From positions 1 through 64,000 of the forward strand of contig JAFEAT010000019.1 in NCBI GenBank assembly GCA_018266255.1: a stretch of DNA of 64,000 bases, written 5' to 3'. Of the stretch, positions 26,422-43,663 are shown one piece after another. The DNA comes from Cyanobacteria bacterium SZAS-4. GTDB taxonomy: Bacteria > Cyanobacteriota > Vampirovibrionia > Obscuribacterales > Obscuribacteraceae. Made by a program: the position numbers and the translations under genes. The number at the start of each line of letters is the position of its first letter. Within the stretch, counting starts at the first letter, position 1. The notes beneath the pieces are model-generated. The model searched no databases, had not been told where the DNA came from, and saw nothing but the letters and a program-made list of their open reading frames with translations.

Positions 26422-27531
26422 ATGCATGCCGGTCGCAAGTCGTTAGCAATTCTGACGCTGGCACTGGCTTTGCTTCTCTTTCAGAGCAGTTGCTTTGCCG
26501 CTCCCGCCGAGCAGCATTCTCAAACCACTGCTGGTGACAGTTCGCGCGCGTTTGGCGAGGCATTATTGCTGAAACTGTCCGGGTCCAATGTGGAATACGA
26601 TAAGAGCCTTGGCGCGCATGCGGTTTTCAAAGGAAGCAAAGAAACTGCTTTCGACTTGCACAACCGCAAGCTGACCTATGCTGACTGGACGATTCTGGGC
26701 GGTCAGAAAACTATCAAGAAGCTCAATCTTGCTGGTACAAATCTGACCGACCAGGAGCTTGAGAAGTTGAAAGGGTTAGTCAATGTCGAGCAACTCGACC
26801 TTGCTAGAACCAAAGTTTCAGCGAAGGGCTTGGCAGTTCTTCAATCATTTCCGAAATTGCAGGTGCTATCAGTTAGAGGCATATACATCTCGGATCAGTC
26901 GGCTCAACTTTTGAGTAAATTGAAAACGCTCATTGCCCTGGATGTGACCGATACAGCCATTTCAAATGCGGGAATTGCATCGCTAGAAAAGTTGACTCAG
27001 CTCGAGCGGTTGACCGCCAACCAATTAGCTCTCTCGGAATCTGGTTGCAAGTCAATTGCCAAATTGAAACGGCTGCAGTTGCTGGCAATCGACAAAACCG
27101 GATTGACCGATAACTTGCTCAATGCAATGGCTCCACTTACTTCTTTGCGTGAATTGAGAGTGCGAGACAACGACCTTACCGATGCAGGTCTCGAAACTAT
27201 TTCTGGTTTTACTCTACTTGAAGAGTTGGATCTCGGTAATAGCAAATCAATCGACGATGCTGGAGTGAAAAAACTCACCGGACTAAAAAATCTGCGTTTA
27301 CTGGGTTTGGCCGGAACTAACATCACTAATCAAACTCTCGACACTATCACCGTGTTTAAGCAGTTAGAGAATCTCGGGCTGCGCAACACAAGGAATATAG
27401 ATGATAGTAATTTGCAGGCGCTGACCAAACTGAAGAATTTGAAAGAGCTAACCACTGTAGGCAGTAAAATCACAGCCAAAGGACGCAACTATCTGACCGC
27501 TCATTTCCCTCAACTGCATATACTTTACTAA
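26422..27531 (+). CDS. Exported leucine-rich-repeat protein
   Basis: A signal peptide (LAILTLALALLLFQSS, cut near CFA-AP) precedes about ten LRR units of 23-25 residues, for example VEQLDLARTKVSAKGLAVL and LRELRVRDNDLTDAGLETI. The repeats run from about residue 90 to the end and have the 'T-x-I-T/S-D-x-G' form of bacterial RNI-like LRRs also common in Planctomycetes. It should form a curved, protein-binding solenoid in the periplasm or outside the cell. The lipobox is not canonical. It starts six bases after etfA, so it may be cotranscribed, without an obvious functional link. Confidence 0.82.
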   Translation: MHAGRKSLAILTLALALLLFQSSCFAAPAEQHSQTTAGDSSRAFGEALLLKLSGSNVEYDKSLGAHAVFKGSKETAFDLHNRKLTYADWTILGGQKTIKKLNLAGTNLTDQELEKLKGLVNVEQLDLARTKVSAKGLAVLQSFPKLQVLSVRGIYISDQSAQLLSKLKTLIALDVTDTAISNAGIASLEKLTQLERLTANQLALSESGCKSIAKLKRLQLLAIDKTGLTDNLLNAMAPLTSLRELRVRDNDLTDAGLETISGFTLLEELDLGNSKSIDDAGVKKLTGLKNLRLLGLAGTNITNQTLDTITVFKQLENLGLRNTRNIDDSNLQALTKLKNLKELTTVGSKITAKGRNYLTAHFPQLHILY

Positions 27532-29525: not shown

Positions 29526-30032
29526 CTAGCAGCGACAACGTTGCTTTTGCCATAAATGCGGCATATTTTCGCGCAAGCTGTAGACTTCGTCTGCTTCTGT
29601 TGGACTGACGATCAGATGGTCGATGACAGCAATGCCCATGAGATTTCCGGCACTTAGTAACTGCTTGGTTGTGTCGACATCTTCTTTGCTCGGTGTTATA
29701 GACGAACCGGACGGATGGTTATGGCAAACGATGATGGCGTAGCTGTTGGCGATGATGGCTGCTTTGAAGACCTCTCTTGGATGCACCAAGCTGGATGAGA
29801 GCGTTCCATGCGAGACTTCATGGATGCCTATCACTTCGTTTCTTGCGTTTAAATGCAGGCTGACGAAGTATTCTTCCGACGCTTGTTTGAGCGGTCTGAG
29901 CAGTCTTCCTGCATCCACTGGTGACTGGATGGGATAGGGCTCTCGCGCTTTTGTATGTTCGTTCACCAGACAAAGTCGAATCTTTGGGACGCCGTAGTCG
30001 AGTTTATCCACCAGGCTGCTTTTTCGCGCCAT
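29526..30032 (-). CDS. radC: RadC-family JAB-domain protein
   Basis: The JAB/MPN zinc-hydrolase fold of RadC is intact: HEVSHGTLSSSLVHPREVFKAAI, then the metal-binding CHNHPSGSSITPSKED and HLIVSP. The N-terminal helix-hairpin-helix of full RadC is missing; the protein is about 168 aa. The ATG at 30032 follows GGAGG by seven bases; the longer frame to 30134 has no support. RadC proteins are common in mobile elements and DNA repair or competence contexts, but their biochemical role is unresolved. Confidence 0.85.
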   Translation of the reverse strand: MARKSSLVDKLDYGVPKIRLCLVNEHTKAREPYPIQSPVDAGRLLRPLKQASEEYFVSLHLNARNEVIGIHEVSHGTLSSSLVHPREVFKAAIIANSYAIIVCHNHPSGSSITPSKEDVDTTKQLLSAGNLMGIAVIDHLIVSPTEADEVYSLRENMPHLWQKQRCRC

Positions 30033-30156
30033 GAGTTTCCTCCTTAGTTTGCAGGGCGGTGTAAGCAGACTTCGGAGCATCTTCCGAAATTTACTTCTAC
30101 TGACTAATACGTGCAAACATGCAAAAAAGTTCAAAGCTCGAACAAATTGCTCGAGC

Positions 30157-31575: not shown

Positions 31576-31640
31576 ATTTAGATCTCTAGACTATCTAAAT
31601 AGATGACAATAGGAAAGGGGATATCACGAAAAATTGTCAT
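31576..31640. promoter_or_regulatory. Two perfect 8-bp inverted repeats in a divergent promoter region
   Basis: ATTTAGAT (31576-31583) and ATCTAAAT (31593-31600) are separated by 9 bases. ATGACAAT (31603-31610) and ATTGTCAT (31633-31640) are separated by 22 bases. Both lie between the divergent MATE and TOPRIM genes. The first has the size and symmetry of a repressor operator; the second could be an operator pair or an mRNA hairpin before the TOPRIM start. Confidence 0.5.
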
Positions 31641-31663
31641 TAAGCGTGGAATGCTAGGATCTA

Positions 31664-32932
31664 TTGGGCTTAAGACATAAGCGTGCGCTCTGTTTTACTG
31701 ATTTGGTGCAAACTACACATTTGAAAATTGTTGGCGACAAATTCAATCTCGATGTAAGCGAATTACCAGCGCCTTTTGCCGACGACTTCTGGTCGATGTT
31801 GCAGAAGTATCTTCTCTTCGATGAACCGTCGAGCCGCTGCACCCGCTTGAAAAAATCGATTGCGAAACAGATGAAATCGCCGCGGGCGAAAGAGATTGAT
31901 CTGAGTGTCGCCAATCAGGATGAGCAAGATCGTTTGTTCGATGCGATTTTTGGTGCTCGCCCAAACAGTGACACCAGCCGGCTTTTGAGCGTTTTGCTGG
32001 GTCTGGAGGAAATTGCGCGCTTCGACGAAATTACATTCGCCAGTTGGTCGATAGAAGCAGGACCAGCAGAGACGAATTCGCTGCGAGGAACCGATTTTTG
32101 GAAAGGTTTGGATCAGTGGTTCGCGGCTGCCAATTTATCCGCGGGGCAAATTCGCTGGTTGCATCATTGCGCGGTCGCATCGCCGAATTGGTCTGCCTTG
32201 AAAGAATCTGGTCCATGGAGCGGAGTTTCAATTGCGATATTTCTGTTGCAAGCGCTCAAGCAAATAGAAAATCAAATTTCTGCAGAAACTGTATTTGATA
32301 CCAAAACTTTCGCAACTGCTCACGCTCACTTCAACAAATTGTTGAAATCAATGCGACCAGAATTGCCAGGTCACTTCATGCCTAACGCTATCGTGATTGT
32401 CGAGGGCTCGACTGAGGAGGTCTTGTTGCCTCGTTTTGGGCAAGTATTGGGAATGAATTTTCAAGCTGAGGCGATCATGATTGTCTCCGCTGGTGGTGCC
32501 AAGCAAGTGGCCAAACGCTACCTTTTTCTTCGTGATTTGGTCGCGATACCGATCGTGTGTATTTTGGATCGTGATGCAGAAGAACAGTCAGCTTTAATTG
32601 CTGACACGATTCGAGACTGCGACCGACTCTTTGTTTTGCAAGCTGGTGAAATTGAGGATACTTTCAATTCGAAGTCATTTGCCCGCTATTTGAATTCTTA
32701 TTTGGAATCGTTTCCTGGATCGGTGCAACCTGTTGTTGAAGGCGATGTTCCCGCTGGAGCAAGTCGTAAAGCGGTTCTTGCCAGGTTGTGGAAGGCCCGT
32801 AAGCTCGGAGATTTCGACAAAATAGCTTTCGCCGAATCTGTTGCACACAGCCTTGATACCGCCAGTGATGTGCCTGTAGAGTTTGTCCAAATACTCAAAT
32901 TTTTGGCTGAGGTGGCTGCAGAAAATGCCTGA
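31664..32932 (+). CDS. OLD-like TOPRIM-domain protein without ATPase
   Basis: The C-terminal half (about 240-415) is a TOPRIM domain of the OLD type: VIVEGSTEEVLLPRFG gives the catalytic Glu, VCILDRDAEEQ the DxD metal motif, and GEIEDTF a further acidic motif usual in OLD nucleases. Helices ending DVPVEFVQILKFL follow, as in family members. The N-terminal 230 residues are mainly helical and unrecognised; no Walker A motif is present, so the usual ABC-ATPase half is missing. The start is TTG at 31664 behind AGGATC. A four-helix membrane protein overlaps its 3' end by 8 bases. A metal-dependent nuclease activity is predicted; a defence role is only a hypothesis. Confidence 0.8.
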   Translation: MGLRHKRALCFTDLVQTTHLKIVGDKFNLDVSELPAPFADDFWSMLQKYLLFDEPSSRCTRLKKSIAKQMKSPRAKEIDLSVANQDEQDRLFDAIFGARPNSDTSRLLSVLLGLEEIARFDEITFASWSIEAGPAETNSLRGTDFWKGLDQWFAAANLSAGQIRWLHHCAVASPNWSALKESGPWSGVSIAIFLLQALKQIENQISAETVFDTKTFATAHAHFNKLLKSMRPELPGHFMPNAIVIVEGSTEEVLLPRFGQVLGMNFQAEAIMIVSAGGAKQVAKRYLFLRDLVAIPIVCILDRDAEEQSALIADTIRDCDRLFVLQAGEIEDTFNSKSFARYLNSYLESFPGSVQPVVEGDVPAGASRKAVLARLWKARKLGDFDKIAFAESVAHSLDTASDVPVEFVQILKFLAEVAAENA

Positions 32933-33395
32933 GAAAGAGGGCTCTAAGAAGAAGGAAAAGAAGACTGGCGCTGCAAAAGTAGCCGCGATTGCATCAACTG
33001 TCTTGTGGATTTTAGGCTTTGCTCTAGCTTTTGTCGTACCTGCTAACTCGCCATTTGGCTGGGTTCCTGATGGTATGCTCCTGGTCGGCTTCTTTCCCCT
33101 ACTTTATGCCTGGAAGCCCGGTTGGCCATGGGTTGTATTCGGTGTTCTCAACACTATTGTCGGTTTTCTTCTTCTTGTCGCCTTTTACATTCCAGACACG
33201 AATTTCACGCGCGACATGATCATCGTGCGCAAGCATCTAGCCGAGCAACATTCTCCCTACACCTGGATGGTGATTGGGATTATGTCGACAATTTTTGGAA
33301 TGGTGCGAATGGCGATCCACTTGTTTCAGTGGATCAGGAAGAAAAGCTCCAAGCAATCGGCGCCAGTAGAAGCCAGTACGAGCCTCGAACCGTAA
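32925..33395 (+). CDS. Small four-helix membrane protein overlapping the TOPRIM gene
   Basis: The protein of 156 residues has a Lys-rich N-terminus (about 1-18) and four hydrophobic segments: around ASTVLWILGFALAFVVPA, GMLLVGFFPLLYAW, VVFGVLNTIVGFLLLVAFYI and VIGIMSTIFGMVRMAIHLFQW. The tail is short and polar. The ATG at 32925 lies inside the TOPRIM stop region (8-base overlap) with GAGGTGG upstream, indicating translational coupling. No family is recognised. Confidence 0.75.
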   Translation: MPEKEGSKKKEKKTGAAKVAAIASTVLWILGFALAFVVPANSPFGWVPDGMLLVGFFPLLYAWKPGWPWVVFGVLNTIVGFLLLVAFYIPDTNFTRDMIIVRKHLAEQHSPYTWMVIGIMSTIFGMVRMAIHLFQWIRKKSSKQSAPVEASTSLEP

Positions 33396-33407: not shown

Positions 33408-33974
33408 TTAGTAGTTTTCAGTGCCCGCTTTTGCTCTGCCTTCAGCAACTTGCTGGTCTTCAGGCTTGAGTACGCGAGCAAGAAAGCGATCTTCGGTTTC
33501 TAACATGCGTGGTTTTGAGCCGCAAATGTTGGACAGATGTTTCAGTCCCTGTACCTTCTGATCCATGTAATCGCCCCTCTTGGCGATGTACAACCATTGC
33601 TTGATCGCTAAGTTATACAGTTGTGGATTCTTTGTAGTTTGCTGTGCCAGCTTCTTTTCCAGAGCTTCAGCGTAAAGGATTCGACCGTCCATATCGGCTG
33701 GTGACATCTCAACCGACTTGGCCAAAACACTTACTGCTTTGTCAATTTTATTTACGCGAATCAGCTGTTCGCCTTCCATACGCAACGCACTCGAATTGGA
33801 GGTGCTTATATCCAGCATCTGGTCTGATGTGACTAAGGACTGTTCGCCATGAACAATGGGCGTTGTGTCTTGAGAGAAAGCTATGTCTCTGGCCAATGAC
33901 GGCTGCGAAAACATTCCCGCCGCGGCTATTGCCACCATGAGGTGATATTTGATCTTCAGGATGTCACTTCGCAT
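33408..33974 (-). CDS. Exported TPR-like protein of unknown function
   Basis: A signal peptide (YHLMVAIAAAGMFSQPSLA) is followed by a polar stretch and one clear TPR-like helical pair (GEQLIRVNKIDKAVSVLAKSVEMSPADMDGRILYAEALEK) and a second, weaker pair to about residue 140. The ATG at 33974 is chosen because GGAG lies six bases upstream, inside the longer frame that starts at 33986. It is likely periplasmic. It lies between convergent membrane protein and rpe, on the same strand as rpe. Confidence 0.68.
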   Translation of the reverse strand: MRSDILKIKYHLMVAIAAAGMFSQPSLARDIAFSQDTTPIVHGEQSLVTSDQMLDISTSNSSALRMEGEQLIRVNKIDKAVSVLAKSVEMSPADMDGRILYAEALEKKLAQQTTKNPQLYNLAIKQWLYIAKRGDYMDQKVQGLKHLSNICGSKPRMLETEDRFLARVLKPEDQQVAEGRAKAGTENY

Positions 33975-34003
33975 TAACAGCTCCATTTCATTGCCAACTC
34001 TTA

Positions 34004-38422: not shown

Positions 38423-41400
38423 ATGACAAACGACTGGAACAATTTCTCAATAGGCAAGGTGGAACCGAAAGATTCCACTACACCTACGCCTGCTGTTCCA
38501 CTCGGGACCACACTAAACCTGGCTAGCCTCAGACCGAACGATCGTCCTGCTGGACCAGCGGCGCCTGTTGCTCCTGCTGGAAGCGGAACTTTCATGGACG
38601 CCGCCGGCGGATTCATGACCGGTATGGGCAAGCAAGCCGTTGGCACGGTTGATTCCCTCCTTGGGATGGACAACGTCCTCCTGAAGAAAAATATCGCTAT
38701 GGGCGGCAGCGGCACCACCGCCGAGGGTGTTGGCTGGATGCCTGTTGCCGGAAAGCTCATTCACGGTGTCAGTGAGACTGTTTCGGTTGCCTGGCATAAC
38801 CCGGGTGCGATTATGGCCATCCCCGGTCAAATCGCGCAGCAATGGAACAACGGCGATATGCGCACCCGAGGCGACATCGCTGGTCAGGCTACATTTATTA
38901 TCGGTTCTCTGTTTGTTGGTGGTAGCGGCGCTGCGAAAGCCGGCAATATCGCTGGCGACGTGCGGGAAGCCTCAGTTTTGTCCAAGGGAATGACCACACT
39001 TGGCGAAACCGGCAACACCGTACGAACCCTCGAAACCACAGTCACCGGATTGCGCGGCTCGAACCTTGTCGCTGATGCCAGCAATTTCGGAAAAACCGGT
39101 CTCATGGCAGATGCCGCCGGACTGACCAGAACGACAGCTTTAGCAGGCGATGTGACAGCCGAAGCCGGATTATTGACTCGCGGCGCCGGAGTTTTGGACC
39201 AGACTGCTAACGGTTTAATCAGAACCGGAAGCTTCACTGAGAAAGTATTGCCTGCCACTGAAGGCGCAACCAAGTTCCTGGTTAAAGGTGGCGAAACTGC
39301 ATCGAGCCTCGGTCTTGGCGAAATGTCCATGCCGAATCGTTTACTTGGGTTGCAGACGACTGAGCAAGGTGCCGGCGTCGTCAGCAAATTCCTTTCCCGC
39401 TTCAAAGCAGCGCCCGAGCTGGAAACCAGCCTAGGCACAACCGTTCAAAGCATTCCAAAATTTGGCAAAGGCGCGGCGCTCACCGAAGATCTTGCTGCCG
39501 CCGGCAGAGTGGCTGACTTCACTACCGATGCAGGAAAACTCACGGGACTTACATCTGACCTCAGTCACGCAGGTACGATGGGTCGCGCCGCTACTGACGC
39601 TGAAAAACTTCTCGCTGGTGGAGCTGGCAAAGTTGAAGCTCTCGGCACCAATGCCGGTAAAGTTGAAGCGCTCGGCACCAATGTCGGCAGAGTCGAAACA
39701 TTCGGCGCCAAGGCAGAAACGCTCGGCGTCAAGGCTGAAACGCTCGGCGTGAAAGCTGAGACCGTTGGCGGAAAAGTCGAGACGCTTGGTGGCGCCGGTC
39801 GATTGACCGAGACAGTTGCACCACAGGCGGTGAGAGCAGAGCATGCAGTTCAGACCGCTGAGCAACTGGCTCCTCACATCGATCAATTTGCTGAACAAGC
39901 AAGACTCTTAAGAACTACCGAGAATCTCGGCGCTCACAGCACACCACTGGCTGAACTGGAAACTGGTTTGACCAAGTTCAAGACAGCAGCAGGAGCCGGA
40001 GAACGCGCCGAAGCCTTAACTCAATTGAACAAGACCGTCAGTGCACTCGAAGCGCAAGGTGTTGAAACCTCGGCTCTGCGCAGCTCACTGACTCGCTTGC
40101 AAGCTGAAACTCAAACCATCGAAAGAGTGTCGCAGCTTCGCACTGCCACTACTCAGATCGCCGAACACTCTACAACGTTGACTTCGCAGACTGCCGAATT
40201 GACCACTAAGTTCGGTGGACGAGCCTCAGTTCAAGAGCTGGAGCAAGCTACTAAGCAACTGGCACAAGCCAAAAACGCTGGGGAAACAGCTCAAGCTCTT
40301 GGCGCCGTAGAGAAAGCGACCGCCAAAGTGATTGCAGACTTGCCTGCTGAATCAACCGCCGCACTGCGTACGACAGTTGAATCTCTAAGAGCGCCAGTTC
40401 AGTTCGCGGCCAAAGCCGAAGCTGCCGAAGCTGTCGCCACGCAATTCGCAGAGCGCTCCGCTTCACTCACCAAGCAAGTTTCAGAACTGACTACAAGCCC
40501 CGCCGTGCGTGAGTTGGATGTCGCTACCAAACAATTGGCGCAAGCAGGAAGTGCGGCTGATAGAGCACAAGCTCTGTCTGCAGTAGAGAGAGCTTCGGCC
40601 AAAGTAATGACTGAAGTTCCTGCAGAGACTGCGACCGCGCTTCGCACTACTATTGAATCGCTGAAAACTCCAGTACAAGCTGCTCTCAGAAGCGAAGTGG
40701 CTGACGTTGCTGCTGCCCAAATCGTTGAACGCACTTCTGCATTGACCGAACAGACTACTCAAATTGCAGCGAAATATGGCAGCAAAGCTTCGGTTCAAGA
40801 ACTATCCAACGCCACCAAGGCGTTTAATGAAGCTGAAACCTTCAGCGAAAAAGCGCGGGCGCTCGGAGCTGTCGAAAGAGCTACCGCTAGAGTCGCCAAT
40901 GAAATTCCTGAAGCTGGTGCCAGCTTGACGAAGACTGTAGAAAGTCTGAGAGCGCCAGTTCAAACCGCTGTCAAAGTTGAACAAACCGAGATGGTGGCGG
41001 CGCAAATCGCTGAACGTTCGAATCAGTTAGCTGCCGAAACTTCGCAACTGGCTGCCAAATTTGCTGAGAATCCAGCAGTTCGTGAGATGAGCACGGCATC
41101 GAGAGAATTCGCTCAAGCGAAAAGCGCAGTTGAACAAGCTGAAGCTTACGCGAAGATGGAAAAAGCGGCAGCCGCTGTCAAAGAATTGGGACCAGAAGGT
41201 GCCAAAGTTGCACGCACCGTCGAGTCGCTCGGTGCGCCGGTTGAGACCGCTGCTCGTGCTCAAAGAATTGAAAATGCAGTCGTACAAGTTGAAGAACGCG
41301 TCGGCTCGTTGACGACTCAGACAAAATCTCTCGTAACAGAACTTGCTGCTGAAGGTAAGGTTCCAGCTTCTGTTCGTGACCTCGATGCAGCCGCAGCCCG

Positions 41401-43663
41401 CCTGCAGCAAGCAACCACAGCTTCCGAAAAAGCTGAAGCTTTCGCCGCAGTGCAGAAATCTGCCACCGAAGTCGCTACAGAACTGCCAGGTAAATCAGCA
41501 CAGATCACCAAGACTGTTGAATCGATTGCACCACACGTCGAGCAAGCAGAGCGCTTGACTCAGTTCGAAAACGTATCGTCGAAACTTGCTTATCATGCCG
41601 ATGATGTTGCCAAAGAAGCATCGCTTCTCAAAGCAACCAATTCGACTCTCAAGTCTGAAGCCGCGTTGGCCGATTTGCAAACTAGCGCCAGCACTTTCAA
41701 AGCCGCAACAGCCACCGAACGCACTGAGCAGCTCGCTCAGATGAACAAGAACTTGCGCCTCGTTGAAGCAGAAGTCGGCGAAGCGAAAGTTGCAGGTCTT
41801 CGTACAAGCGTCGCTCGTTTGGAAAACGAAGCTGGCACATTCGAGCGCATGGCCACTGTCGATAAGTCAGTTGCTCAAGTGAGCGAACAATCGCAATCGT
41901 TGATTCGCCAGGTTGCTGAACTTGACGCGAAGACAACCAATGCCGCAGTCAAGCTTTCACTGGAAAACCTCAGAACCGCTGCCACCGAAACTGGTACCGC
42001 GAACGCTCTGAGCCGCACCGAGTTGCTCGCACAACATGCGAAGGATATCGCAGTTGTTGAGCGTGAAATGGGCACCATCGCCGGTGGACAGATGCGCACT
42101 GCCGTCGCTGAGTTGGACCGCGCCACCGCTGCTGCTAGATCGAATGCGATTGAATTAGTCGAGTACCAAGGCGCTAAGATCACACAACAACTCGGCTACT
42201 TGCAAGAAGGCAACCTCGGTTCACGTGTTCAAGCTCTGCGCCTCGAACAGTTGCAGCATGACGTTGCTGTAATGAAGTCGATGGTGTCAGCCAACGCTGA
42301 AGCCTCGACACAGTTGTTGAAACTAGAACAACAAATCAAGGGCGTTGATGCCGTTGCTAACATTCTGGCTCATCCTGAAGTTGCTAGAGCCCCTGGCAAA
42401 GAGTTGCTTAGACTGGCTCAGAGCGCTGATTCCGCCACTGCAACAGCTGCTGCAGATAGACTCGTTCTCAGTGGCAAGTACGAGAAGCTTGGCGAAGGTC
42501 CTGTTTCTGGCTTGATTTCAGAGCGCGCACAATTCTGGAATACACAAAACAAACTTACGGCTCTAGAAGACACCGTCAAGACAAAGCTGTTCGAATCAGG
42601 CAAGTTGTTCGGTCTGCCATTCGGCGATCCGATTTTGAAGAAGACATTGTTCGACATCGCCGCAGCCTCAGGTGGCATTCTCCTGCTCGACGGCGTTGCC
42701 GGCTACAACTTGAACAAGATCGCAGCCATGGCTCGCGACAATGTGCTTAGTGCCCAGGCTGAAGCGCAGGCACGCAAAGACGACCAACCTAAGAAAGAAG
42801 CAGAAGTTAAGCCAACCGAAGTCAAAACAACTAACGCTCAAGGTCAAACAATTTCGAACACCACCCAAGCTAGCAACAGTGGCAATTCGAACGCCGTCGC
42901 AAACGTACAAGCTACCAGAGCTTCCGACAACACCGGTTCGGAAACCTACACTCGCACATCGCAACAAGTCGTCTTCAAGAGTGATGCTCAAGAAGTGAAG
43001 ATGTCGCCAGTAGCGCAGGTCTATGCCACTCCGAAGTTCTTAGCTTCTGAAGAAACCAACAACATTCCAGCCGGAAGTTTCCCAACAAGCGGCGCAAGCT
43101 GGTGGTGGAAGCAACAACATGGTGGCAACCCATGGGGCTTCAACCGCGGTCCTGGAGCTGCTCCTGTCGTTCAAGAAGACGTGAAGCAGTCCGTGCAAAT
43201 TACACCGCGTGCTCGTGGTATCGCCGCAACTCCTCAAGACGATCTGACCAAGATCGCTCAGGTGCGTTTCCCCATTCCTCGCGTAATGGACATTACAAAT
43301 CAGGCAATGCTGCTCAACAGTCCTAACCAGTTCTCTTCCAAAGCCGGAAGACCTGGTGGCGTCGGTGGCACCGGCGGTGGTACGAGAAGCTGGGCTACGG
43401 TTGACTGGAGTCAAATCGGAGCACACCGCTCATCTACATCAGAAGGCGGCAAAGGCAACAAAGATTTGGCTAACCTCGAGAAGGACGAAGAGCAGGGAAT
43501 TGACGGAGCCGGCGGCACTGTCACCGCTCAGAATCAGCCTGGCATTCCAGTTTTAGCTCAAAATGCCAACGATCCAAATGCAGTCGATCCTAACGATCCG
43601 AACTCAGTTGTCGCTCTCAATGCGCAACAGAAAAAAGACGACGATAACTTCGCCAAAGTTTAG
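38423..43663 (+). CDS. Giant alanine-rich coiled-coil repeat protein (1746 aa)
   Basis: I recognise no family for the whole protein. There is no signal peptide. Residues about 55-190 are Gly/Ala-rich and hydrophobic, with WHNPGAIMAIPGQIAQQW and GDIAGQATFIIGSLFVG, resembling segments that precede toxins in polymorphic toxin proteins. Residues about 403-457 are short 'KVEALG' repeats. From about 470 to 1300 helical units of 92-99 residues repeat; the anchor TVESL occurs at about residues 652, 744, 839, 933 and 1032. A hydrophobic stretch lies near 1412-1430. The last 300 residues are disordered, rich in Asn, Gln, Ser and Gly, and end in repeated DPN. It may be a structural scaffold or surface fibre. 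It stands alone. Confidence 0.85.
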   Translation: MTNDWNNFSIGKVEPKDSTTPTPAVPLGTTLNLASLRPNDRPAGPAAPVAPAGSGTFMDAAGGFMTGMGKQAVGTVDSLLGMDNVLLKKNIAMGGSGTTAEGVGWMPVAGKLIHGVSETVSVAWHNPGAIMAIPGQIAQQWNNGDMRTRGDIAGQATFIIGSLFVGGSGAAKAGNIAGDVREASVLSKGMTTLGETGNTVRTLETTVTGLRGSNLVADASNFGKTGLMADAAGLTRTTALAGDVTAEAGLLTRGAGVLDQTANGLIRTGSFTEKVLPATEGATKFLVKGGETASSLGLGEMSMPNRLLGLQTTEQGAGVVSKFLSRFKAAPELETSLGTTVQSIPKFGKGAALTEDLAAAGRVADFTTDAGKLTGLTSDLSHAGTMGRAATDAEKLLAGGAGKVEALGTNAGKVEALGTNVGRVETFGAKAETLGVKAETLGVKAETVGGKVETLGGAGRLTETVAPQAVRAEHAVQTAEQLAPHIDQFAEQARLLRTTENLGAHSTPLAELETGLTKFKTAAGAGERAEALTQLNKTVSALEAQGVETSALRSSLTRLQAETQTIERVSQLRTATTQIAEHSTTLTSQTAELTTKFGGRASVQELEQATKQLAQAKNAGETAQALGAVEKATAKVIADLPAESTAALRTTVESLRAPVQFAAKAEAAEAVATQFAERSASLTKQVSELTTSPAVRELDVATKQLAQAGSAADRAQALSAVERASAKVMTEVPAETATALRTTIESLKTPVQAALRSEVADVAAAQIVERTSALTEQTTQIAAKYGSKASVQELSNATKAFNEAETFSEKARALGAVERATARVANEIPEAGASLTKTVESLRAPVQTAVKVEQTEMVAAQIAERSNQLAAETSQLAAKFAENPAVREMSTASREFAQAKSAVEQAEAYAKMEKAAAAVKELGPEGAKVARTVESLGAPVETAARAQRIENAVVQVEERVGSLTTQTKSLVTELAAEGKVPASVRDLDAAAARLQQATTASEKAEAFAAVQKSATEVATELPGKSAQITKTVESIAPHVEQAERLTQFENVSSKLAYHADDVAKEASLLKATNSTLKSEAALADLQTSASTFKAATATERTEQLAQMNKNLRLVEAEVGEAKVAGLRTSVARLENEAGTFERMATVDKSVAQVSEQSQSLIRQVAELDAKTTNAAVKLSLENLRTAATETGTANALSRTELLAQHAKDIAVVEREMGTIAGGQMRTAVAELDRATAAARSNAIELVEYQGAKITQQLGYLQEGNLGSRVQALRLEQLQHDVAVMKSMVSANAEASTQLLKLEQQIKGVDAVANILAHPEVARAPGKELLRLAQSADSATATAAADRLVLSGKYEKLGEGPVSGLISERAQFWNTQNKLTALEDTVKTKLFESGKLFGLPFGDPILKKTLFDIAAASGGILLLDGVAGYNLNKIAAMARDNVLSAQAEAQARKDDQPKKEAEVKPTEVKTTNAQGQTISNTTQASNSGNSNAVANVQATRASDNTGSETYTRTSQQVVFKSDAQEVKMSPVAQVYATPKFLASEETNNIPAGSFPTSGASWWWKQQHGGNPWGFNRGPGAAPVVQEDVKQSVQITPRARGIAATPQDDLTKIAQVRFPIPRVMDITNQAMLLNSPNQFSSKAGRPGGVGGTGGGTRSWATVDWSQIGAHRSSTSEGGKGNKDLANLEKDEEQGIDGAGGTVTAQNQPGIPVLAQNANDPNAVDPNDPNSVVALNAQQKKDDDNFAKV

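What the first reader, a model, noticed from the sequence alone, without database searches (positions are those of the whole stretch)
31664..33395. TOPRIM (OLD-type) protein without ATPase, translationally coupled to a four-helix membrane protein
The sequence shows a C-terminal OLD-type TOPRIM domain with its catalytic Glu and DxD residues, no Walker A motif, and an unrecognised 230-residue N-terminal half. A small membrane protein starts inside its stop region (8-base overlap) behind GAGGTGG. OLD-family TOPRIM proteins are normally fused to an ATPase and several act in phage defence (OLD, Gabija GajA). A nuclease plus membrane-protein pair could be a simple toxin-effector or defence module. 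The defence idea is inference; the coupling and domain calls are from sequence.
Basis: partly seen in the sequence, partly recalled or inferred. Interest (0 to 1): 0.68.

Follow-up and report, generated by a model that had tools for sequence, protein, structure and literature searches.

The report
Core ATPase-less TOPRIM nuclease with membrane partner
This is a two-gene chromosomal operon, kept by almost every sequenced member of one group of non-photosynthetic cyanobacteria, that pairs a DNA/RNA-cutting enzyme of the 'OLD' type, stripped of its usual ATP-driven motor, with a small four-helix membrane protein; it looks like a standing housekeeping unit of unknown role rather than an anti-virus or toxin cassette.

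Summary
A C-terminal OLD-type TOPRIM/helical nuclease core is present (Pfam E 9e-11; predicted structure matches Xcc/Bp class 2 OLD, TM 0.65), with the complete two-metal site plus catalytic lysine. There is no Walker A. The N-terminal half is predicted all-helical and matches nothing known. A 156-aa four-helix membrane protein starts 8 bases inside its stop. The gene probably starts at TTG 31721 (403 aa), not 31664.

The defence/toxin reading is not supported. The TOPRIM gene is present in 48/50 genomes of the window's family (21/21 high-quality ones). It sits in fixed synteny among ispG, radC, MATE and rpe, with no defence neighbours. Orthologues without the membrane gene occur in 128/129 genomes of another family and in three more families. 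They are not detected in three further families of the class or in photosynthetic cyanobacteria.

The membrane gene was found only in the window's order. It is adjacent to the TOPRIM gene in all 49 genomes where that could be tested.

Best reading: a vertically inherited, ATP-independent OLD-type nuclease with a lineage-specific helical module, co-expressed with a membrane partner. The closest parallel is archaeal Cran1, a housekeeping OLD also paired with a membrane protein. Substrate and partner role are inferred. Rated a new variant of a known kind.

The parts
31602..31643 (.). 8-bp inverted repeat ATGACAAT / ATTGTCAT (22-nt spacer) between the divergent MATE gene and the TOPRIM gene; probably back-to-back promoter elements (TTGTCA) or an operator
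   Evidence: Read: both arms and most of the spacer are identical in three congeneric species. The consensus scan did not flag a sigma-70 promoter here. Function inferred.
31721..32932 (+). OLD-type TOPRIM nuclease without ATPase; probable real CDS (TTG start, 403 aa). The longest ORF starts at 31664 (422 aa)
   Evidence: start
31766..32371 (+). N-terminal all-helical domain with no known match; conserved motif LxFxxP near its start (L50, F52, P55)
   Evidence: no Pfam, NCBIfam or fold hit on this part
32384..32929 (+). TOPRIM plus helical domain = OLD catalytic core: E247, E251, D302-x-D304, E329-x-E331, and K386 in the motif FDKxxFA
   Evidence: residue equivalence to Bp OLD E400/E404/D455/D457/T506/E508/K562 from PMC6755086
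32909..32915 (+). Shine-Dalgarno-like GAGGTGG inside the TOPRIM gene, 9 nt before the ATG of the next gene
   Evidence: GAGGTGG kept in L055 but not in L054
32925..33395 (+). Four-transmembrane-helix protein, 156 aa, start overlapping the TOPRIM stop by 8 bases; invariant W28, L34, D49, G55, F56, P58, F72, G73, G80, L83, H109, W114, G125
   Evidence: no family or fold match

Best explanation
The pair is a vertically inherited housekeeping operon of the order of non-photosynthetic cyanobacteria to which this genome belongs (Obscuribacterales). Gene 1 is an ATP-independent OLD-type nuclease: a class 2 OLD-like TOPRIM/helical catalytic core that cuts phosphodiester bonds by two-metal catalysis. 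Its usual ABC ATPase is replaced by a lineage-specific helical module that probably binds substrate or a partner, or shields the active site. I think a nick or limited cut in chromosomal DNA (replication, repair or segregation) is the most likely reaction, by analogy with Cran1; RNA is the main alternative substrate. Gene 2 is a small four-helix inner-membrane protein made by translational coupling, so that the two are produced together; it most likely tethers or gates the nuclease at the membrane. Shown: fold, complete active site, lack of ATPase, coupling, near-universal retention, fixed synteny. Inferred: nuclease activity, substrate, role of the helical module, physical interaction with the membrane protein.
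For: Complete OLD active site with matching spacing (E+4E, D+2D, E+2E; 55 residues from the last Glu to Lys against 54 in Bp OLD), invariant over 31 divergent sequences. 48/50 family genomes carry the gene, 21/21 of those at least 90% complete and at most 5% contaminated; one of the two misses holds the membrane gene at the very end of a contig. 128/129 genomes of family f5, 3/3 of f3, 2/2 of f8 and 1/1 of f9 also carry it. Conserved block ispG-radC-MATE< >TOPRIM>mem< 192-aa gene-rpe< >acyl-CoA dehydrogenase. The pair stays together where its flanks rearrange (L052, L053, L059, L062, L065, L066). TOPRIM and membrane genes adjacent and co-oriented in 48/48 genomes where both lie on one contig, plus L065, making 49. 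No PADLOC hit in 10 neighbouring genes. The only OLD-like TOPRIM in this genome is this one. Literature parallel: class 5 OLD Cran1 is apparently essential, non-defensive, and in a conserved operon with a membrane protein (PMC12796447).
Against: TOPRIM is the fastest-diverging of the 12 conserved genes compared (64-67% identity within the genus against 73-95%), and its N-half is faster still. That is more typical of a conflict gene or a loosely constrained one than of a core enzyme. It is not detected in three families of the class (f4, f6, f7), so it is dispensable somewhere. The nuclease exists without the membrane gene in f3, f5 and f8, so the partner is not needed for its basic role. The most polar conserved residues of the membrane protein (D49, H104, H109) are predicted to face outward, not towards the cytoplasm. 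In the Cran1 precedent the membrane gene was dispensable and overexpressing it had no effect. The residual rate correlation of TOPRIM with the membrane gene (0.55) is little above that with MATE (0.46) or the acyl-CoA dehydrogenase (0.44).
Confidence: 0.55

Rival explanations
1. A fixed (non-mobile) abortive-infection or genome-surveillance effector: the nuclease is held inactive and released when the membrane partner senses infection or damage to the envelope.
For: OLD TOPRIM domains are mostly known from defence (GajA and Old PADLOC profiles hit the TOPRIM part, E 6e-11 to 7e-7). A nuclease with a membrane partner, fast divergence, and especially the variable N-half, would fit.
Against: Present in nearly every genome of the family in a fixed core locus. 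No defence genes nearby. No full-length match in phage or plasmid collections apart from one record that looks bacterial. Orthologues without the membrane partner in other families.
Confidence: 0.17
2. The nuclease acts on RNA, like RNase M5 or the PARIS effector AriB: a maturation or decay nuclease for rRNA or tRNA.
For: The OLD active site is structurally shared with RNase M5 (PMC6755086). AriB, an OLD-related TOPRIM, is a tRNase (PMC12409363). No RNase M5 above cut-off in 11 genomes of the class, so that job is vacant.
Against: RNase M5 is absent from many bacteria (hits over cut-off in only 2 of 14 control genomes). The sequence is nearest to DNA-cutting class 2 OLD, not to M5. No RNA-related neighbours.
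Confidence: 0.2
3. The two genes are only co-transcribed: the membrane protein has an independent envelope function and the nuclease does not interact with it.
For: The nuclease exists without it in other families. Its most conserved polar residues are predicted to face outward. The membrane protein paired with archaeal Cran1 proved functionally unlinked (PMC12796447). The whole block is syntenic, which inflates pairing.
Against: The pair is kept in all 49 testable genomes, including those where the other flank changed. Start overlaps or abuts the stop in most genomes. The membrane gene was never found without the nuclease gene in the class, except at contig ends.
Confidence: 0.35
4. A toxin-immunity or toxin-antitoxin pair.
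For: Two overlapping genes, a nuclease and a small protein.
Against: The immunity candidate is missing in most lineages that keep the nuclease. The nuclease is the larger protein and cytosolic; no signal or polymorphic-toxin domain. Single-copy core gene, not patchy.
Confidence: 0.04

Closest known systems
Class 2 OLD nucleases (Xcc/Bp OLD, GajA): catalytic C-terminal region
   Same: TOPRIM plus helical domain fold (TMt up to 0.65); all metal ligands and the catalytic Lys at matching spacing
   Different: No N-terminal ABC ATPase, and a helical module in its place; no UvrD-like helicase (GajB) neighbour; core gene, not a defence-island gene
Cran1, class 5 OLD of Sulfolobales (PMC12796447)
   Same: Non-defensive, vertically kept OLD in a conserved operon with a small membrane protein; two Glu in the ExE position (E409/E411, as E329/E331 here)
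   Different: Cran1 keeps an active ATPase that its nickase activity depends on; archaeal; its membrane partner was not compared by sequence here
PARIS AriB (class 4 OLD)
   Same: TOPRIM nuclease encoded apart from any ATPase; two-metal site
   Different: AriB is held by the AriA ABC ATPase encoded next to it; here no ATPase gene is adjacent and no DUF4435-type match was found
Standalone OLD-like TOPRIM protein of Hymenobacter plasmids (WP_052381936.1)
   Same: No ATPase; long N-terminal half of other sequence, C-terminal TOPRIM ending in FDKVAFA
   Different: 512 aa, unrelated N-half with a CxxC pair, beside a site-specific integrase and transposase; no membrane partner seen
RNase M5 / RecR (stand-alone TOPRIM housekeeping proteins)
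   Same: Small TOPRIM proteins without ATPase; M5 shares active-site geometry
   Different: Not hit by sequence; RecR is separately present in all 11 genomes tested, so this is not a RecR replacement; M5 profile misses it

Membership tests
OLD family nuclease | OLD-type TOPRIM domain | tested here: met
   Pfam PF20469, 42.6 bits against a cut-off of 23.2; all 31 aligned orthologues match; fold match to OLD CTR structures
OLD family nuclease | Two-metal acidic site plus helical-domain Lys | tested here: met
   E247, E251, D302, D304, E331, K386 invariant; equivalence by spacing and by PDB profile alignment
OLD family nuclease | N-terminal ABC-type ATPase domain with Walker A | tested here: not met
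   No Walker A; no ATPase Pfam hit; N-half predicted all-helical. So it is a relative sharing the catalytic core, not a canonical OLD.
Gabija (GajA-GajB) | GajA with ATPase plus adjacent UvrD-like helicase GajB | tested here: not met
   GajA profiles match only the TOPRIM part; neighbours are MATE and a 4-TM protein
PARIS (AriA-AriB) | Adjacent ABC ATPase AriA and DUF4435-type TOPRIM effector | tested here: not met
   No ATPase gene adjacent; no DUF4435 match
Cran1 / class 5 OLD | Operon with a membrane protein | tested here: met
   49/49 testable genomes; homology of the two membrane proteins not tested
Cran1 / class 5 OLD | ATPase domain needed for nickase activity | tested here: not met
   No ATPase domain
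Cran1 / class 5 OLD | Essential, cell-cycle regulated | not testable with these tools
   Needs a cultivated relative and genetics; near-universal retention is only consistent with it
Anti-phage defence system | Patchy distribution, defence-island or mobile context | tested here: not met
   48/50 genomes, fixed synteny; no PADLOC hits in 10 neighbouring genes
RNase M5 | M5 sequence profile | tested here: not met
   TIGR00334 finds nothing in this genome
RecR | RecR profile / replacing a missing RecR | tested here: not met
   A separate full RecR is present in all 11 genomes tested

The most novel reading that the evidence does not exclude
A new, non-defensive class of OLD-core nuclease: an ATPase-free, lineage-core enzyme of non-photosynthetic cyanobacteria that works in chromosome maintenance and, in one order, is bound to the membrane by a dedicated four-helix partner, a bacterial counterpart of archaeal Cran1 with its membrane protein.
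Probability: 0.25. Interest if true: 0.75.

Novelty: new variant of a known kind. Interest (0 to 1): 0.52.

Why it matters
OLD-type TOPRIM nucleases are known almost wholly from phage defence and as parts of ATPases. A near-universal, single-copy, ATPase-free version fixed in the core genome of one bacterial lineage suggests that the catalytic core can work, and be controlled, without the ATPase, and that housekeeping OLD nucleases are not only archaeal. The recurrence of an 'OLD plus small membrane protein' operon in two domains of life is a testable coincidence or a real functional link.

Tried and rejected
(a) Degenerate ABC ATPase in the N-half: rejected, no Walker A in homologues and an all-helical model. 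(b) Defence island: rejected, core neighbours and no PADLOC hits. (c) Replacement of a missing RecR: rejected, RecR present. (d) RNase M5: no profile match; an RNA role stays possible. (e) Mobile gene: the one phage match, 'Microcystis phage MaAM05', is syntenic with a bacterial genome of this class and looks mislabelled; the plasmid matches are 25% identical standalone TOPRIMs of Hymenobacter with another N-half. (f) In-frame stops reported in some homologues: at least one case is the gene's own terminal stop inside the matched stretch (L037), not recoding; the others were not checked one by one. (g) Second hit in this genome, C14:91970 (E 5e-5): a tetratricopeptide-like repeat protein without TOPRIM, chance. 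(h) Co-evolution of rates between the two genes: only slightly above background, inconclusive. (i) Fold search of the membrane protein: nothing significant. (j) Viral contig scan with the alignment: not possible, too few conserved columns. (k) Search for a dedicated OLD-type ATPase partner with AAA_15: only weak matches to several ATPase-like frames in this genome, no clear candidate.

Full report
What is there. The window carries a 1,269-bp ORF (31664-32932, +) and, overlapping its stop by 8 bases, a 156-codon ORF with ATG at 32925 behind GAGGTGG. The first protein matches Pfam OLD-like_TOPRIM, and a 31-sequence profile finds the Xanthomonas class 2 OLD catalytic region in PDB. An AlphaFold model built from six natural sequences (mean pLDDT 71; about 80 over residues 100-235 and over the C-terminal core) matches the OLD catalytic regions 6njw and 6nk8, and nothing else at E <= 0.001. 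The matched region includes the helical domain that follows TOPRIM in OLD.

Active site. PMC6755086 assigns E400, E404, D455, D457, T506, E508 and K562 of Bp OLD to the two metals and the scissile phosphate. Here E247, E251, D302, D304, E331 and K386 are invariant in 31 sequences, and E329 (the T506 position, Glu also in Cran1) is nearly so. Spacings match almost exactly. The sequence therefore shows an intact nuclease site, kept while the rest of the protein fell to about 20-35% identity.

No ATPase. No Walker A occurs in the protein or in its divergent homologues. The N-terminal half is predicted entirely helical and matches no family. It shares a short LxFxxP motif with orthologues and evolves faster than the core.

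Start codon. In two congeneric species the DNA from about 120 bases upstream is conserved, and TTG-AAA at window 31721 is shared. In one of them no start codon lies between that TTG and the preceding stop. Orthologues that do have ATG starts begin 22-23 residues before the first conserved Trp, against 24 for a start at 31721 and 43 for one at 31664. I take 31721 as the start. An 8-bp inverted repeat at 31602-31643, identical in the three species, lies between this gene and the divergent MATE gene and may hold back-to-back promoter elements. The promoter scan did not flag it, so this is only a reading.

Distribution. In the window's family 48 of 50 genomes have the TOPRIM gene; of the 21 that are at least 90% complete and at most 5% contaminated, all have it. 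Outside the family it is in 3/3 genomes of family f2 (same order), 128/129 of f5, 3/3 of f3, 2/2 of f8 and 1/1 of f9. It is not detected in the sampled genomes of f4, f6 and f7, or in photosynthetic cyanobacteria beyond weak matches, two of which lie in 750-800-aa frames. Longer OLD-like frames (573-638 aa) appear in only 4 of the 50 family genomes. Named relatives include 'Candidatus Obscuribacter sp.' and 'Candidatus Melainabacteria bacterium palsa_1080'; the order name Obscuribacterales, and Gastranaerophilales for f5, are my inference.

The partner. The membrane protein is in 50 of 52 genomes sampled from the order and was found nowhere else in the class. Wherever both genes lie on one contig they are adjacent and co-oriented: 48 of 48, plus L065. 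The remaining apparent exceptions are contig ends. In most genomes the second start lies between 32 bases before and 26 bases after the first stop. The block around them is itself conserved (ispG, radC, MATE; a 192-aa gene, rpe, acyl-CoA dehydrogenase). Pairing is thus partly inherited synteny, but the pair survives where one or both flanks have changed. The protein has four predicted membrane helices. By the positive-inside rule the termini are inside, so invariant D49 and H109 and near-invariant H104 would face outward. It matches no known fold.

Interpretation. Fixed synteny, near-universal retention, single copy and the lack of defence neighbours argue for a chromosomal housekeeping role, not a defence or toxin cassette. 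The published archaeal Cran1 is a striking parallel: an OLD nuclease that could not be deleted, showed no defence effect, and forms a conserved operon with a predicted membrane protein (PMC12796447). The same paper also warns that its membrane partner was dispensable and appeared unlinked in function. Fast divergence of this TOPRIM gene relative to its neighbours is the main fact that does not fit a quiet housekeeping enzyme, and it keeps the surveillance rival alive. The substrate is not known. DNA is favoured by the nearest structures; RNA is possible because M5 and AriB use related sites.

Conclusion. The defence reading is not supported. The unit is best filed as a new variant that uses the OLD catalytic core without the ATPase that defines the OLD family.

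Noticed in passing
GenBank MW495066.1 (L085): 'Microcystis phage MaAM05' (274 kb) is syntenic with bacterial locus L037 of this class (pxpA, GNAT, TOPRIM, pabC-like, MgtC-like; 31-56% identity), so the record is probably a bacterial contig mislabelled as a phage.
   Followed up: partly
window 31602-31643: Perfect 8-bp inverted repeat (ATGACAAT/ATTGTCAT, 22-nt spacer) between the divergent MATE and TOPRIM genes, identical in three congeners; back-to-back promoter elements or operator.
   Followed up: partly
window 29526-30134: RadC-like JAB-domain gene, conserved two genes upstream of the pair in nearly all family genomes.
   Followed up: no
window 33408-33986: 192-aa protein with no Pfam match, conserved immediately downstream (opposite strand) in most family genomes; reads like a TPR-type exported protein.
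   Followed up: no
window 26422-27531: 369-aa leucine-rich-repeat protein, not shared with the neighbouring regions of relatives.
   Followed up: no
NZ_CP006588.1 and NZ_CP040937.1 (L086 3071-4606): Hymenobacter plasmids carry a 512-aa standalone OLD-like TOPRIM protein with a different, non-ATPase N-half, next to an integrase: an ATPase-free OLD form outside the cyanobacterial phylum.
   Followed up: partly
window 38423-43663: A 1,746-aa ORF, with shorter or diverged counterparts in the two congeners; not examined.
   Followed up: no
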